Source: Candidatus Methylospira mobilis (GTDB lineage: Bacteria > Pseudomonadota > Gammaproteobacteria > Methylococcales > Methylococcaceae). Taken from it: a DNA stretch of 64,000 nt. The stretch is from positions 4,031,389 through 4,095,388 of the forward strand of contig NZ_CP044205.1 of the NCBI RefSeq assembly GCF_009498235.1, written 5' to 3'. A program made the translations under genes and the position numbers. The notes beneath the pieces are model-generated. The model was not told the origin of the DNA and ran no database searches. It saw nothing but the letters and a program-made list of their open reading frames with translations. Numbering within the stretch: position 1 is the stretch's first letter; every line of letters begins with the position of its first letter. This document shows positions 33,203 to 44,055 of this stretch, in pieces.

Positions 33203-33346
33203 ATGACCGGGAACCGATTGCTGATTACCGGGATTAACGGACTAATCGGGAGCATACTGCGAAAGGCCTGGGGCCGGAGTGCATACGATTTCCGGCACAG
33301 GCCGGAAAAGGCCCTTATTCCGGACAGATATGCCGCTTCTATATTA
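33203..33346 (+). pseudogene. NAD-dependent epimerase/dehydratase, N-terminal fragment
   Basis: Fifteen bases behind uup, with a GGAGG ribosome binding site, the frame MTGNRLLITGINGLIGSILRKAWG carries the GxxGxxG Rossmann motif of extended short-chain dehydrogenases. The fragment is interrupted at 33346 by an IS element; the continuation of the same fold lies at 34166 onward. A one-base phase change just before the junction shows that the gene was already damaged or has decayed since. Confidence 0.65.
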
Positions 33347-34165
33347 GGTTCTATTGACATGAGCACGCGCCACCAGTGAAGCTGGAACCATTTCGAAAAT
33401 GGCTCTAACCGGCTCGACATTAGCGCCGAAGACTGGAGCGTTATCTATCCCATACTGGTGAAGCATCGGCATGTCCGGTCGACGTCCGGGGAACAGTGCC
33501 GGGTCTTTCTGATCGCCGTTCTGCAAACTCTTCGATCGGGATCGCAATGGCGTTTGCTGACGGAAGCGCATGGCAACTGGAACGCCGTGTTCAAGCGTTT
33601 TTCCCGCTGGAGCAGGCATGGGGTTTGGCGGTCGCTGTTCGCCGGATGCATCCATCATCCTGATGTGCAAAGCGTGTTTATCGACTCCACCATCAACCGG
33701 GCTCATCCCTGCGCCGGTTGGCGCGGCGGGCGGCAACGCCGGGGACGAAGCCTTGGGACAATCGAAGGGCGGGTTCAGCACCAGGATTCACGCCATCACG
33801 GATGCTTTGGGGGAATCCCCTCGAATTCGTACTGACCGGAGGGCAGGCTGAAACCTTGCCGGCGCTGACGCCGGCGGGTGCGCGTGCGTTTGTCGGCGAC
33901 AAAGGCCATGACAGCGATGCGCTGGTCCAGGCCATCGTAGCAAGGGATATGAAAGCCGCCATTCCTCCGGCGCTGCAATCGGAACAAGGTGCGCGAATGC
34001 GATTGGCTTATTTACAAGGAACGCCGTCTGATTGAATGCTTCTTCGACAAAATCAAACATTACCGGAGAATATTTTCGCGTTTTGAAAAAACGGCTCGCA
34101 ACTACATGGCCTTCCTTCACTTTGTCTCAGCTCTCATTTGGTTGCGGTGATACGTCAACAGAACC
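33347..34165. mobile_element. IS5-family (IS427-like) insertion sequence, decayed, ~819 bp
   Basis: Left end GGTTCTATTGAC (33347-33358) and right end GTCAACAGAACC (34154-34165) are inverted repeats with one mismatch. Each end is flanked by TA (33345-33346 and 34166-34167), consistent with the TA target duplication of IS427-type elements. Between them is a transposase reading frame broken by several frameshifts. The element has landed inside an epimerase gene. Confidence 0.85.
33380..34150 (+). pseudogene. IS5-family transposase, frameshifted
   Basis: Reading in order: frame one gives ISAEDWSVIYPIL, VLQTLRSGSQWRLL and FSRWSRHGVWRSL, then FIDSTINRAHPC with the first catalytic Asp. After a shift comes GGNAGDEALGQSKGGFSTRIHA, then TGGQAETLPAL and VGDKGHDSDALV, the second Asp region. 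After another shift comes IYKERRLIECFFDKIKHYRR with the Glu and FHFVSALIWLR before TGA at 34148. IS427 members naturally use one programmed frameshift, but at least three phase changes here and no good start indicate an inactive copy. Confidence 0.85.
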
Positions 34166-34345
34166 TAGCAACGCCCGGCAATTTGTTGATCTATTACGCA
34201 AGTTTTCTGCGGTTGATGCCGTAATCGAGCTGGCCGCCGACTCCCATGTTTATGTTGATTGGGAGCATGCCTGTACATCAATATTTAAAGAAGTTCCGTC
34301 TTCATGGTTACGTCACTTCACCATGCAGAGGCGTAAAAAAAAACA
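34166..34345 (+). pseudogene. NAD-dependent epimerase/dehydratase, internal fragment
   Basis: Beyond the IS right end the frame reads SNARQFVDLLRKFSAVDAVIELAADSH, matching the epimerase stretch in which a helix is followed by VDAVIHLAADS after the Rossmann beta-alpha-beta unit. The catalytic YxxxK part and everything downstream are missing. Together with the fragment at 33203 it is one gene split by the IS. The end of recognisable homology near 34250 runs into the small-RNA region. Confidence 0.6.
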
Positions 34346-34366
34346 GGGTGCCTGCTAGACGCCCTG
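34335..34366 (-). terminator. Intrinsic terminator of candidate small RNA B
   Basis: Minus-strand hairpin: nine-position stem with one mismatch and one G-U pair, five-base loop, and nine Ts directly after (A-run at 34335-34343 on the plus strand). Confidence 0.75.
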
Positions 34367-34433
34367 CTCAAGAGAAGGAGGAGGATCTCACGCACTGCGC
34401 CAGATCGCTTGAACGGTAGAATCCCTTCAAGTG
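34335..34433 (-). ncRNA. Candidate small RNA B (~99 nt, CU-rich linker, intrinsic terminator)
   Basis: On the minus strand a TATAAAAT box at 34447-34440 would start RNA near 34433. The predicted RNA folds CTTGAA...TTCAAG (12-base loop), then GATCT...AGATC, then a single-stranded CU-rich tract CCTCCTCCTTCTCTT, and finally a hairpin CAGGGCGTC/GGCACCCTG followed by nine Ts. This hairpin-hairpin-linker-terminator plan is typical of trans-acting small RNAs whose CU-rich loops pair with ribosome binding sites. No -35 box is seen; an imperfect palindrome GTGACAGATTGTCGC lies about 58 bases upstream of the start. Not verified by expression or conservation. Confidence 0.5.
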
Positions 34434-34520
34434 TCGATAATTTTATAATAAACATGATTTTTATGAATGTGGCATATTGCCGCGTGACAGATTGTCGCAT
34501 CTTAAGTCTGCCGCGTCCGC

Positions 34521-34548
34521 AAAAAAAGGGCTGCCAAACAGGCAGCCC
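34521..34548 (-). terminator. Intrinsic terminator of candidate small RNA A
   Basis: Perfect inverted repeat GGGCTGCC-TGTTT-GGCAGCCC on the minus strand followed by seven Ts (34527-34521). It is the strongest intrinsic terminator seen in the window. Confidence 0.9.
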
Positions 34549-34623
34549 AATGACATCATACCAGAGGATAACGAAAGCGTACCGGTGCGTGTGTATAAAT
34601 ACATGAGGTAGGCTCTATCGTCG
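34521..34623 (-). ncRNA. Candidate small RNA A (~103 nt, intrinsic terminator, CRP/FNR-like site)
   Basis: On the minus strand a TATAAAAT box at 34637-34630 predicts a start near 34623. Upstream, TGTGACATGGATCAAG has a TGA-N6-TCA core centred about 41 bases before the start, the classical position for class II activation by CRP/FNR regulators. The RNA contains a TGTATTTATACA palindrome and ends with a perfect eight-pair hairpin GGGCTGCC/GGCAGCCC and seven Ts. It lies about 200 bases downstream of the porin gene on the same strand. No convincing protein is encoded. Alternative: only a distal terminator of the porin transcript. Confidence 0.55.
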
Positions 34624-34657
34624 GGTGCTATTTTATAATTCTGACTGCTCCTAACCT

Positions 34658-34669
34658 TGATCCATGTCA
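34658..34669 (-). promoter_or_regulatory. CRP/FNR-family operator-like site
   Basis: The core TGACATGGATCA on the minus strand has TGA-N6-TCA dyad symmetry within TGTGACATGGATCAAG. The left half matches the CRP half-site TGTGA; the right half is intermediate between CRP and FNR (TCAAG). Its centre lies 40-42 bases upstream of the start predicted from the TATAAAAT box at 34637-34630. Which regulator would bind is not decidable from sequence. Confidence 0.45.
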
Positions 34670-34825
34670 CAAAATCGAGCGTTTCTCGGTTTTTCGGCAC
34701 GATTTTTCCGGCACTATGCCGATTTCCTGCTGACGACGGCGCTATCGGGGCAACGCTGATTCAGGGCCGGTTGAACAGGGTTACGTAAATTTAATGCCTG
34801 AAAAACAACTGATTGTTGCGATGCG

Positions 34826-36328
34826 TTAAAACTCGACATGGGCGCGTCCGGAAACGACATTAACCGGACCACGGTCTGCGTTGTAAGCCGGGTGGGCGAT
34901 AAACTGGTAGTCCGCAGAAACCCAGAGCGAACTCCAGACGTTGTAACTGTAGAACAGATCCACCACCTGCTCGGGTTTCTGCGTTATCTTGCCGTCGCCG
35001 ATAAAGCCGTCGATGCCGCCCATGCCCAGGTACTGCGCATGTATGCCGGATATCCAGCCTTGGGAATAGCCCAGCCCCAGCAAATCCTTTTTGCGATCCC
35101 AGAGGCCGCCGCTGATCAGCGTGCCGAGTGAAATGGAACGGTCGGTAGAGGTATAGGAATACACTTCGGTCTGACCATCCGAATACATGCCGCGGAAGAA
35201 GATGCCGATATCGTCGGTTATCGCCTGCTCCAGATTGATGCCGCCGCCGAATTTGTCGTTGGGTTTGCGCGCCCAGCACAGATCCGGCGCAGTCGGATTC
35301 TGATTGTCGTAACTGAATGCGCCGGCAGGACAAGCCGTAGCGTTTTCAGCTCCGCCGGAATTATTGTACGCACTGATTGCATCGCTGAACTTGGCCATGT
35401 TTTCATGGTTGTGAAAAAACAGCAACCGTACCGCGCCTTTACGCCCGAACAGGGTATGCCGGTGTTCCAGCTCGTACTGGTCGCCATAATAGGCCAGCGT
35501 CGACCATTGCAAATCCAGTTGATTGGGGTTTTGAGGCGGCAAAAAACGGGCAGCCCTGAAAGTCCAATCGTCTAGATAGTATTCGGCCACCACGCCGAAG
35601 GAGTAGCCGCGTGCGTCGGCGGCGAAATCGTAGGCGGCAAACGACAGAAAGGACATGTTCAAAAACTGCTGACGCAGATCGCCCGAATAGATGTTTTTAT
35701 CGAAAACATCGAGTACGCTGAGAATGCCGCCGGTTAAAACCAGGCGGTTGCCGTCTACCGTAGTGCCCAACTGCAACGGGTCGGACTCCAGCTTGATCCG
35801 TTCGCCGCCCAGATTGAAGGTTTGACGCAGATAGGCGCGCGACAAATAGATGGTGGGTTGCTCTGTGCCGTTTTTTTGTAGCTCGAAGTTTTGTATCGAG
35901 CCGCCCAAGCCCTTCAGACCTGAAAAAGGGGTTTCCGAAATCATTTCCGGCGCAAGATAAACATGCCCGCCGTCCCACAATTTCACGCCAAAGTAGCCGG
36001 TGACCGTCCCGGTAAACGAAATTTCCGCTTTAGGCGTCAAGGAGTTGGTAGAGCCACCGAAATTAGTGTATTTCGCTGAAAAAGCCGGATGGTAGTTATA
36101 GACGAAAGTGCTTTGCCCGTAAGCGTTCCAGCGTTCGTCCTCCATATCGTGGAGTCCGTACTGATTCAACAGCTTCATGAAAGAAAACTCGTCTTCTCCG
36201 CGCGGCTCAGGCTCGGCTACTTCTGCATGCAGCCGCACAGAAAATCCCGATGCGACCAGTAATGCGATCAAGATAGGGATGTAGCGAGCACGCACGACTA
36301 GTCGCATATGCGCTTGGAAGAAAAACAT
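34826..36328 (-). CDS. Outer-membrane porin, OprB/carbohydrate-selective-porin-like
   Basis: Predicted outer-membrane beta barrel. A signal peptide (RYIPILIALLVASGFSVRLHA) is followed by DEFSFMKLLNQYGLHDMEDERWNAYGQSTFVYNYHPAFSAKYT, alternating strand segments, aromatic-rich turns, and a C terminus ending GRAHVEF with the terminal Phe recognised by the BAM machinery. ATG 36328 is favoured by an AGGATAG ribosome binding site; 36307 and 36382 are in-frame alternatives. The body resembles the carbohydrate porin OprB group of ~500-residue proteins. It is divergent from a response regulator/kinase pair that may control it. Substrate unknown. Confidence 0.78.
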   Translation of the reverse strand: MFFFQAHMRLVVRARYIPILIALLVASGFSVRLHAEVAEPEPRGEDEFSFMKLLNQYGLHDMEDERWNAYGQSTFVYNYHPAFSAKYTNFGGSTNSLTPKAEISFTGTVTGYFGVKLWDGGHVYLAPEMISETPFSGLKGLGGSIQNFELQKNGTEQPTIYLSRAYLRQTFNLGGERIKLESDPLQLGTTVDGNRLVLTGGILSVLDVFDKNIYSGDLRQQFLNMSFLSFAAYDFAADARGYSFGVVAEYYLDDWTFRAARFLPPQNPNQLDLQWSTLAYYGDQYELEHRHTLFGRKGAVRLLFFHNHENMAKFSDAISAYNNSGGAENATACPAGAFSYDNQNPTAPDLCWARKPNDKFGGGINLEQAITDDIGIFFRGMYSDGQTEVYSYTSTDRSISLGTLISGGLWDRKKDLLGLGYSQGWISGIHAQYLGMGGIDGFIGDGKITQKPEQVVDLFYSYNVWSSLWVSADYQFIAHPAYNADRGPVNVVSGRAHVEF

Positions 36329-36707
36329 GACACTATCCTGGTTAACGACTTTAAACATTTGAATCAATACTTTATAAACCAAACAAAACCAGCCCTATTA
36401 TTCAGCGAGACGTTATCAGTGAATATGGTAGCAACCAACGCGCTGTTTTCATGGGTGCTGCCCGTCAAAACAGGCAAGCTAGCACAAGCGATTGGGTTGT
36501 GGTTAGTTTGCCGACTTTTTAATCATTCAATTTCGACTGCAGGAACGGTCCCAAAACTTGAGTCTCCATGATAACGGCGGATATGGTAATAAAAAACAGA
36601 TTAAGCAAGTCTGAATTCTTCTTCAGAATACAAGCCGGTGTGAACAAGCAGGTTAAACTATTGACGGACAAATCCAGACTCGCTCATGACTACGCATGCA
36701 AAGAATT
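36329..36707. promoter_or_regulatory. Divergent promoter region between porin and response regulator
   Basis: About 380 bases. A dyad TCTGAA-TTCTTC-TTCAGA lies at about 36609-36626, some 80 bases before the regulator start, and could be an operator for the adjacent OmpR-type protein. No clear -35/-10 pair was assigned. A plus-strand frame beginning at 36308 is open here (87 residues), but it has no recognisable relation and starts inside the porin. Confidence 0.35.
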
Positions 36708-41578: not shown

Positions 41579-44055
41579 TAAATCAGCTCCCTGAAATTCA
41601 GCACCATCAGTACCGAGCCGTCGCCAAGCAACGCCGAACCGGCGTAGCCGGGAAGGCCGCCCAGAATGCCGGTCAGCGGTTTGAGGATGATATCCACGGT
41701 TTCACGAAAATCGTCGACGATGACGCCAATCAGATCGTCATGCACGCGCACCACCATCACCGCCAGTTCGCCGTCCTCATTAGCCCGTTGCGGTACGTTC
41801 AGAGCCAATAAATCATTGAGCGACAGCAACGGAATTATGCGTTCGCGCAAGACTGCGGTCAGTCGCCGCTGGATGGAGCGAATCGCGGAGCGCGATACTC
41901 TGACCGTTTCCACCACACTTTCCATCGGCACGCCGAACACTTTATCGTTGGTTACGATGATCATCACATTGCTGACCGCCATCGACAGCGGCAATGACAA
42001 ACGGATACGGGTGCCTCTGCCTTTTTCGCTGTCCAATGTAACGATGCCGCCGATCTTTTCCACGGTGCTGCGCACCACGTCCATGCCGACGCCGCGCCCC
42101 GATAGATCGGACACTACGGCAGCGGTGGAAAAACCGGCGGCAAACACCAGGTTAACGGCCTCCCGATCGGTGATACGCTCCAGCATGGCCTCATCTATCA
42201 GGCCGTTTTCATAGGCTTTGCGCTTGATAATGTCCGGATCGATGCCTTTGCCGTCGTCGGCTATATCTATCAGCACACGATCCGATTCCTGACTGGCGCA
42301 TATACTCAAGCGTCCGGCCGCCGGCTTGCCGGCGGCGCGGCGTTGACCCGGCGGCTCCAGACCATGATCCAGACTGTTGCGTACGATATGAATCAGGGGG
42401 TCGGCCAAGGCTTCGATAATGTTCTTATCCGCCTCGGTATCCTCTCCTGCCAGCACCAGGTTGACTTCCTTGCCTAGTTTCCTTGATGTGTCGCGTACCA
42501 GACGCGGGAATCGTTGAAAAATAAATGATACCGGCATCATGCGTATCTGCATGATGGCATCCTGCATTTCTTCGGCGATACGGTTGACCACGGCGTATTG
42601 CGCCTTGATTTCGCGCGCAAGCTCGCTTGCTCCGTATTGCGCTTCGGCACGATTGGCGAGATAAGGCAAACTGTTTTTGGCTACCACCATTTCGCCGATC
42701 AAACTCATTAGCCGATCAATTTTTCCCTGATCTACCTTGAGCGTTCTCGCGACGGCATAGCTGTCCTCGGCGCGGCGCCCGAACTTGATCTCCACGTCAG
42801 GATGAGACGCCGTACTTACGGAAGGCTCTTCGTACGCAGGCGCTGTATTATCCGGTGTTTCCGGTAGCGGCTGCCCCGTAAATCCGGCTGAACTGCATTC
42901 GGACGTACGAAGAGCGGCGCGCAGCCCCGATGCCCTGGGGAGCGGGGGAACTTCCCTGCAGGTTTGACTGTTTTTCTCTTTCTCCGGCAATTCGGGCAGG
43001 AATTCATCCAGCCAAGTTTGCAAAGGCAGCGCTTTGACCTCGGTCAAGGCAAGCGCCAGCGACTTTTCCAAACTTGCCAGTAATTCCTTTCTTCCCGTCG
43101 CGCGCAAACAAGCCGCCAAAGTGGCCGCGACTGACTGCAAGCGTCCAGGCAACCACGCGTCGTTATCCGGTAAACTCAATATTTCGCGCTGAGACTGAAC
43201 GATGGCACGGAAACCGTCGACATCGGATTCCGAACCCGGTACGCCGTTGTTATCGTCATGAGGCGCGGCCAGGACCAGGGCTGGTATGGCAGTTATGCCG
43301 ACTTGTTCGGGAATATAGCGGAACAGCTCATGCAATATGGCAGGTTCAGCCGCGGTCAGCGCCCGAAAAACAAGCTGGCAACGATATGCATCCAACTCTG
43401 CCAGAGGCGGCATTGCCTGCGCAGAGGCGATGCCGCCCCAAACGGTTTCCGGGATTTGCAGCATCAGGAATAACGGGTCTTCGCCTTTGAAAAAGCAGTC
43501 TGCTTCCGGGGTATACTCCAGCCACGACAGGGGCGAGCCTGCCATGACATCGCGGTAAAGCCGCATGCGCAGGGCTGCAGGCAGTTCGCTTAAGGCCAGG
43601 GAAAGCGACGCGCTGATTGCGGCGGTTTTTGCTGGACCCGGGACCGATTCGACGGATTTGACTTCGCCGCTATCGCCCATCAATTGTTGCAGCGATTTGG
43701 CCAGATGCGCCGAGTAATCGGCGTGTGCGGCGCTGCTGCTTCCCGTTGCCTCGATTTCGTCCATCAACAGGCCGACGAAATCCATGGTCTCCAGCAAGCG
43801 GTCCGCCAGGGACTCGGAATAGGCCACGCGTCCATCGCGCACCGTATCCAGCAAGTCTTCGCCGGCATGCAGCACCCGTGTCATTTCCGGGAACTCGAAC
43901 AGACCGCTGCCGCCTTTCAGCGTATGCACCAGACGAAACAGTTCTTTCATCAGTTCCGGGCTGCCGGGGCTAGTCTCAAGCTGTAAAAGTTTTTCACCGA
44001 TGCCTTGCAACAAGTCGCGCGCCTCGGAAATAAATTGTTCCAGTAAAGGAGTCAT
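41578..44055 (-). CDS. cheA: Chemotaxis-type histidine kinase CheA
   Basis: Central kinase of the array, 825 residues from ATG 44055 (SD AAGGTG; the open frame to 44097 is extra). N-terminal Hpt domain with phosphoacceptor His44 in LVHTLKGGSGLFEF; a long middle part (~130-480) that includes two regions unlike E. coli CheA P2; dimerisation P3 helices near KVDQGKIDRLMSLIGEMVVAKN; ATPase domain with N box DPLIHIVRNSLDHG, G1 DIADDGKGID and G2 SDLSGRGVGMDVV; and a C-terminal CheW-like P5 domain (~690-825). It lies in the middle of a nine-gene chemosensory operon. Confidence 0.95.
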   Translation of the reverse strand: MTPLLEQFISEARDLLQGIGEKLLQLETSPGSPELMKELFRLVHTLKGGSGLFEFPEMTRVLHAGEDLLDTVRDGRVAYSESLADRLLETMDFVGLLMDEIEATGSSSAAHADYSAHLAKSLQQLMGDSGEVKSVESVPGPAKTAAISASLSLALSELPAALRMRLYRDVMAGSPLSWLEYTPEADCFFKGEDPLFLMLQIPETVWGGIASAQAMPPLAELDAYRCQLVFRALTAAEPAILHELFRYIPEQVGITAIPALVLAAPHDDNNGVPGSESDVDGFRAIVQSQREILSLPDNDAWLPGRLQSVAATLAACLRATGRKELLASLEKSLALALTEVKALPLQTWLDEFLPELPEKEKNSQTCREVPPLPRASGLRAALRTSECSSAGFTGQPLPETPDNTAPAYEEPSVSTASHPDVEIKFGRRAEDSYAVARTLKVDQGKIDRLMSLIGEMVVAKNSLPYLANRAEAQYGASELAREIKAQYAVVNRIAEEMQDAIMQIRMMPVSFIFQRFPRLVRDTSRKLGKEVNLVLAGEDTEADKNIIEALADPLIHIVRNSLDHGLEPPGQRRAAGKPAAGRLSICASQESDRVLIDIADDGKGIDPDIIKRKAYENGLIDEAMLERITDREAVNLVFAAGFSTAAVVSDLSGRGVGMDVVRSTVEKIGGIVTLDSEKGRGTRIRLSLPLSMAVSNVMIIVTNDKVFGVPMESVVETVRVSRSAIRSIQRRLTAVLRERIIPLLSLNDLLALNVPQRANEDGELAVMVVRVHDDLIGVIVDDFRETVDIILKPLTGILGGLPGYAGSALLGDGSVLMVLNFRELI

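What the first reader, a model, noticed from the sequence alone, without database searches (positions are those of the whole stretch)
34521..34672. Second small RNA unit with CRP/FNR-like site at about -41
A TATAAAAT box lies about 7 bases before a predicted start at 34623; a TGA-N6-TCA dyad is centred 40-42 bases upstream of that start; the unit ends in a perfect 8-pair terminator with seven Ts. The geometry is that of a class II CRP/FNR promoter driving a ~103-nt RNA. Both units share the same -10 octamer and orientation and have 190-base spacing, so the locus may be a tandem pair of regulated small RNAs.
Basis: partly seen in the sequence, partly recalled or inferred. Interest (0 to 1): 0.7.

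Follow-up and report, generated by a model that had tools for sequence, protein, structure and literature searches.

The report
FNR-controlled small RNA of methanotrophs
The sequence is a real gene for a short regulatory RNA that methane-eating bacteria appear to switch on when oxygen runs low; it is conserved in many related species, is not in the RNA family library searched, and its target messages are still unknown.

Summary
Alone it would be close to chance, but comparison makes it solid. Unit 2 belongs to an sRNA family that is not in Rfam. I found 23 members: 17 in the window's own family (Methylococcaceae) and 6 in a second Methylococcales family. Every member has an FNR-type box (TTGAY-N4-RTCAA, perfect in 22; the window's copy has one mismatch) centred 33.5-35.5 bp upstream of the last base of a -10 hexamer, which is class II FNR spacing. 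All have a CCTCTGG core followed by an intrinsic terminator. Ten members were found without using the promoter, and all ten had a perfect box (chance about 0.001 each). In 20 of 23 the gene lies just upstream of nqrA. In the window's genome and two others it lies elsewhere with its promoter, core and terminator intact, so it is a free-standing gene. The genome has one canonical FNR and no CRP-like alternative. Unit 1 is a different conserved sRNA family, with RegA/PrrA-like boxes; the tandem pair is peculiar to this genome. Best explanation: an oxygen-limitation-induced sRNA that pairs through an anti-Shine-Dalgarno-like seed, analogous to FnrS. Targets were sought but not found.

The parts
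34657..34670 (-). FNR-type box GTGAC-ATGG-ATCAA (centre 34663.5, about -40.5)
   Evidence: Perfect TTGAYNNNNRTCAA at the equivalent place in 22 other family members.
34630..34635 (-). -10 hexamer TAAAAT (inside the TATAAAAT octamer 34630-34637); predicted +1 near 34623
   Evidence: Last base lies 33.5 bp from the box centre; family range 33.5-35.5.
34521..34623 (-). sRNA gene (unit 2), about 103 nt
   Evidence: Covariance-model hit at G000:C1:4065909-4065972, E=5.6e-9; no conserved ORF.
34561..34569 (-). conserved seed/core ATCCTCTGG (RNA AUCCUCUGG; complement CCAGAGGAU resembles Shine-Dalgarno sequences)
   Evidence: Invariant in 22 of 22 aligned members; CCTCTGG kept in the 23rd.
34605..34608 (-). 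second CCTC motif in the 5' part of the RNA
   Evidence: A second CCTC/CTCC motif is present in 11 of 13 members examined.
34521..34548 (-). intrinsic terminator: 8-bp stem, 5-nt loop, 7 T
   Evidence: helix sequence replaced wholesale but pairing kept across the family.
34484..34498 (-). unit 1: distal RegA/PrrA-like box GCGACAATCTGTCAC
   Evidence: 13/15 to the RegR consensus GNGRCRTTNNGNCGC quoted in PMC5506826.
34469..34483 (-). unit 1: proximal RegA/PrrA-like box GCGGCAATATGCCAC
   Evidence: double box also in G016 (L007).
34440..34445 (-). unit 1: -10 hexamer TAAAAT
34335..34433 (-). unit 1: neighbouring sRNA of a separate conserved family (AGTGCGTGAGATCCTCCTCC block from 34396, terminator with 9 T)
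   Evidence: Homologues in G005, G006, G007, G008, G009.
34826..36382 (-). OprB-family porin upstream of unit 2, same strand; not part of the sRNA unit
   Evidence: PF04966 E=4.4e-29; relatives of unit 2 examined do not sit next to it.

Best explanation
Unit 2 is a free-standing small-RNA gene whose transcription is activated by FNR bound at about -41 (class II geometry) when oxygen is limiting. It makes a roughly 100-nt, terminator-ended non-coding RNA. The RNA most likely acts in trans: the conserved, largely unpaired CCUC-type motif (AUCCUCUGG, often with a second CCUC upstream) pairs with ribosome-binding sites of target mRNAs and lowers their translation, as FnrS does in enterobacteria. 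Shown by computation: promoter architecture, its conservation, the core, the terminator, independence from neighbouring genes, and the presence of FNR. Inferred: induction by low oxygen, base-pairing, repression. Unknown: the targets.
For: (1) 23 members: DNA search, covariance model, nqrA synteny. (2) FNR box in 23/23, perfect in 22, with box-to-(-10) spacing of only 33.5, 34.5 or 35.5 bp. (3) Held-out test: ten members found without promoter information all have a perfect box; null probability 0.00085 each. (4) Four weak hits outside the order have coding-like context and no box, the best scoring 10-12/14. (5) Seed invariant while terminator helices change with pairing kept. (6) In three genomes the gene lies away from nqrA, keeping all elements. 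(7) One canonical FNR: CxxCx5C, the fourth cysteine and an ETVSR helix; best NCBIfam match is Fnr, E=6e-57, below its cut-off; best solved-structure matches are FNR-type regulators. (8) No conserved ORF.
Against: There is no expression or binding data. The window's own box has the weakest left half (GTGAC). A strict pattern search for target sites complementary to the seed gave no target conserved between distant genera. Hfq was not checked. About half of the Methylococcaceae genomes searched, and the large family f4, gave no hit, so the RNA is not universal.
Confidence: 0.8

Rival explanations
1. The element is the 5' leader or attenuator of the nqr operon, displaced in a few genomes.
For: 20 of 23 members lie upstream of nqrA on the same strand.
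Against: In three genomes, including this one, it lies elsewhere with promoter, core and terminator intact. Where linked, the core lies 362-390 nt upstream of the nqrA start in Methylococcaceae and 178-214 nt in the other family, and a promoter-like element (TTTGTGWTCTAATA) lies between terminator and nqrA; a matching element precedes nqrA in this genome, where the sRNA is absent.
Confidence: 0.08
2. The site is bound by a cAMP-CRP/Vfr-type protein rather than FNR (TGTGA-N6-TCAAG).
For: The left half is a perfect CRP half-site in the window.
Against: 22 relatives have TTGAY-N4-RTCAA; of the CRP/FNR proteins in the genome only the FNR has an FNR- or CRP-like recognition helix, the other five full-length ones share RREGVT-type or similar helices.
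Confidence: 0.05
3. It is a 3'-UTR-derived RNA or read-through product of the OprB porin gene.
For: Same strand, about 200 bp downstream of the porin stop.
Against: Relatives of the sRNA are not next to porins; the promoter is conserved independently of context.
Confidence: 0.04
4. The RNA acts by binding a protein (for example a CsrA/RsmA sponge) rather than by pairing to mRNAs.
For: Most members have GGGA in the core, which can form a small UAUCC-UCUG-GGAUG hairpin.
Against: Core GGA occurs once, and the window's member lacks it there (CTGGTATG) and breaks that hairpin; CCTC motifs are what persists.
Confidence: 0.06
5. The transcript encodes a small protein.
For: One ATG frame of 47 codons begins inside unit 2.
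Against: It runs through the terminator, and no frame is shared among relatives.
Confidence: 0.02

Closest known systems
FnrS sRNA of Escherichia coli/Salmonella
   Same: Short sRNA activated by FNR under anaerobiosis; known to repress many mRNAs dispensable without oxygen (PMC8139620).
   Different: No Rfam match at gathering score here; different core sequence (CCUCUGG) and genomic position (nqrA); targets unknown.
PcrZ sRNA of Rhodobacter sphaeroides
   Same: Low-oxygen-induced sRNA depending on PrrA and FnrL (PMC8139620); here the two inputs appear on two neighbouring sRNAs.
   Different: Different lineage; two separate RNAs rather than one; no sequence comparison was made.
PaiI of Pseudomonas aeruginosa
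   Same: Anaerobically induced sRNA of a gammaproteobacterium (126 nt).
   Different: Controlled by NarXL, with ANR probably indirect (PMC8139620); sequence not compared directly.
CCUCC/anti-Shine-Dalgarno sRNAs (for example the Neisseria sibling sRNAs of PMC5362039)
   Same: C/U-rich seeds expected to pair with ribosome-binding sites; in Neisseria the siblings are tandem (from general knowledge).
   Different: Unit 1 and unit 2 are not siblings in sequence and are not linked in other genomes.

Membership tests
Class II FNR-activated promoter | FNR dyad TTGAT-N4-ATCAA | tested here: met
   13/14 to TTGAYNNNNRTCAA in the window, 14/14 in 22 relatives.
Class II FNR-activated promoter | Dyad centred near -41.5 relative to the start | tested here: met
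   Box centre 33.5-35.5 bp from the last base of the -10 in 23/23, equal to about -40.5 to -42.5; start site itself not mapped.
Class II FNR-activated promoter | An oxygen-sensing FNR protein in the genome | tested here: met
   L081: CxxCx5C plus fourth cysteine, ETVSR helix. NCBIfam Fnr score 192.8 against cut-off 228.
Class II FNR-activated promoter | FNR-dependent transcription | not testable with these tools
   Needs an expression or footprinting experiment.
Intergenic trans-acting sRNA | Own promoter and intrinsic terminator, no conserved ORF | tested here: met
Intergenic trans-acting sRNA | Retained when the flanking genes differ | tested here: met
   Four different contexts: porin, cysteine desulfurase/GGDEF, ftsH, nqrA.
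Intergenic trans-acting sRNA | Base-pairing targets | tested here: inconclusive
   CCAGAGGA...ATG patterns gave no target shared between distant genera; the only cross-genus hit is one small protein in G008 and G009.
Intergenic trans-acting sRNA | Hfq or other chaperone dependence | not tested
FnrS (Rfam family) | Sequence/structure match to the family model | tested here: not met
   Rfam scan of the window: only a tRNA reached a gathering score.
RegA/PrrA-regulated promoter (unit 1) | GNGRCRTTNNGNCGC-type boxes upstream of the -10 | tested here: inconclusive
   Two adjacent boxes at 13/15 each and similar boxes in relatives; PrrA homologue present, E=3e-42, NCBIfam score below cut-off; RegA sites are degenerate.

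The most novel reading that the evidence does not exclude
The Methylococcales have a two-arm oxygen/redox sRNA system: an FNR-driven RNA (unit 2 family, probably ancestrally beside nqrA) and a RegA/PrrA-driven RNA (unit 1 family), both with anti-Shine-Dalgarno-like seeds, that together retune respiration and methane oxidation when oxygen becomes scarce. In this genome the two genes have been brought side by side.
Probability: 0.3. Interest if true: 0.65.

Novelty: new member of a known kind. Interest (0 to 1): 0.5.

Why it matters
Gammaproteobacterial methanotrophs live at oxic-anoxic interfaces and limit methane emissions, but little is known of how they regulate genes when oxygen is scarce. 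I found no published regulatory sRNA for Methylococcaceae in the held library. A conserved FNR-driven sRNA gives a defined regulator, promoter and seed to test, and could explain post-transcriptional changes at low oxygen. Its linkage to the Na+-translocating NADH dehydrogenase genes across two families points to respiration as a possible context.

Tried and rejected
Rfam: no family match. Plasmid collection: no match. The first family search with the joint region gave mixed hits; those in L009, L010, L011, L012 and L014 were discarded as chance or coding. Target search by seed complement plus ATG in 7 and then 14 genomes, with about 120 sites fetched and translated: clusters only within a genus, except a small protein in G008 and G009; not accepted as a target. 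The class-wide model search gave only chance hits outside the order. A CRP reading, porin read-through, an nqr leader, a CsrA sponge and a small ORF were considered and set aside (see rivals). The protein typed as a PrrA query was written from memory; the result rests on the strong match and on NCBIfam, not on its exact letters.

Full report
WHAT IS THERE. The finding lies on the minus strand. Reading 5'->3' from 34680: GCTCGATTTTGTGACATGGATCAAGGTTAGGAGCAGTCAGAATTATAAAATAGCACCCGACG. Taken alone this is weak. The terminator scan finds as many terminators as shuffled sequence does. A 13/14 FNR box turns up in 1.4% of randomised upstream regions of that length.

WHERE IT COMES FROM. The host genome is a single 4,703,534-bp contig with no other held genome in its genus. 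Relatives of its OprB porin lie in Methylobacter and other Methylococcaceae genomes. Size, single contig and kinship fit Methylospira mobilis Shm1, a micro-aerobic wetland methanotroph (PMC6956133).

A CONSERVED FAMILY. A family-wide DNA search gave one strong relative of unit 2 in G037 (L006), with a perfect FNR box TTGATCCAAATCAA upstream, the same distance to its -10, and the block TTATCCTCTGGGATGGTGTT before a terminator. Using it as query over 311 genomes of the order gave 13 members. A covariance model of the 3' part only (R1) gave 22 genomes at E <= 0.01: 16 of the window's family and 6 of one genus of another family. One more (G001) was found by looking upstream of nqrA. Total: 23.

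HELD-OUT PROMOTER TEST. The model saw no promoter sequence. The nine further members it found, and the one found by nqrA synteny, all carry a perfect TTGAYNNNNRTCAA. First-order Markov versions of their upstream regions carry one in 0.085% of cases. G001 was noticed partly through its FNR box, so it is the least independent of the ten; and the ten are related to each other, so they are not ten independent events. They span four genera in two families. In all 23 the box centre is 33.5 (12 cases), 34.5 (6) or 35.5 (5) bp from the last base of the -10, the class II FNR geometry; the -10 was chosen as the best hexamer within a 7-position range, which favours agreement somewhat. As a negative control, the four weak hits outside the order look like chance matches, mostly in coding sequence, and have at best 10-12/14 boxes.

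THE RNA. ATCCTCTGG is invariant in the 22 aligned members, and CCTCTGG in the 23rd. The terminator stems differ wholesale in sequence but still pair, with both-side changes at four of the modelled pairs. Most members have a second CCTC/CTCC motif upstream. No reading frame is conserved. The complement of the core, CCAGAGGAU, resembles a ribosome-binding site, so pairing with translation starts is the natural inference.

GENOMIC CONTEXT. In 20 of 23 genomes the sRNA gene lies upstream of nqrA on the same strand (nqrA identity by NCBIfam). In the window's genome, G037 and G025 it lies elsewhere: next to a porin and a broken IS4/5-type element, between a cysteine desulfurase and a GGDEF gene, and beside ftsH (the names in G037 and G025 are read from the protein sequences). 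The nqrA genes of those three genomes have no such element upstream (only 293 bp available in G037). Between the terminator and nqrA there is a separate promoter-like element, with a matching element before nqrA in the window's genome. The gene therefore travels as a unit and is neither an nqr leader nor a porin 3' UTR.

THE REGULATOR. The genome has six full-length CRP/FNR proteins. One (L081) is a canonical FNR: CxxCx5C, an equivalent of the fourth iron-sulfur cysteine, and the recognition helix ETVSR. The other five have a different helix (RRE/RRV-type). Best NCBIfam match Fnr, E=6e-57, below the curated cut-off; best solved structures are FNR-type regulators.

UNIT 1 IS A DIFFERENT RNA. 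Its 3' half (AGTGCGTGAGATC...CTCCTC plus terminator) has relatives in G005, G006, G007, G008 and G009, two copies in some. Upstream they carry TGCGACAAaaTGTC-type boxes; the window and G016 (L007) have two adjacent boxes. These resemble the RegR consensus GNGRCRTTNNGNCGC quoted in PMC5506826, and a PrrA/RegA homologue is present. In the five other genomes that have both families the two genes are far apart or on different contigs. The 190-bp tandem arrangement and the shared -10 octamer are thus local to this genome.

WHAT IS SHOWN AND WHAT IS INFERRED. Shown by sequence comparison: the gene, its promoter architecture, its conservation, its independence and the presence of FNR. Inferred: activation at low oxygen, base-pairing through the CCUC core, repression of translation. 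Not found: targets. Sites with CCAGAGGA followed by ATG gave no target conserved between distant genera; the only cross-genus case is a 97-aa protein in G008 and G009. Hfq was not tested.

VERDICT. This is a new sRNA family of a known kind (FNR-activated, probably FnrS-like in action), apparently undescribed: no Rfam match and no paper found in the held library.

Noticed in passing
window 34335-34500 (minus strand): Unit 1 is a second conserved sRNA family in at least three genera of the family, duplicated in several genomes, with RegA/PrrA-like boxes and an AGTGCGTGAGATCTCCTC block.
   Followed up: partly
window 33344-34120: Broken IS4/5-type transposase (DUF4096, E=1.2e-12) directly downstream of unit 1; it may relate to the gene order at this locus.
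   Followed up: partly
upstream of nqrA in L054, L061, L063, L108, L112 and L170: A conserved nqr promoter-like element (TTTGTGWTCTAATA) and a leader ending in CAGGCT or similar a few bases before the start codon, shared across most nqrA genes examined.
   Followed up: partly
L265 and L213: A 97-aa protein whose start codon follows CCAGAGGA in two genera; from memory it resembles CowN, but NCBIfam gave no match. Possible but unproven target of the sRNA.
   Followed up: partly
window, whole: FNR-like 14-mers with at most one mismatch are more frequent than in shuffles (16 against 6.1 expected; none of 100 shuffles reached 16). The only perfect one (43034-43047) lies inside a CheA-like coding gene.
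   Followed up: partly
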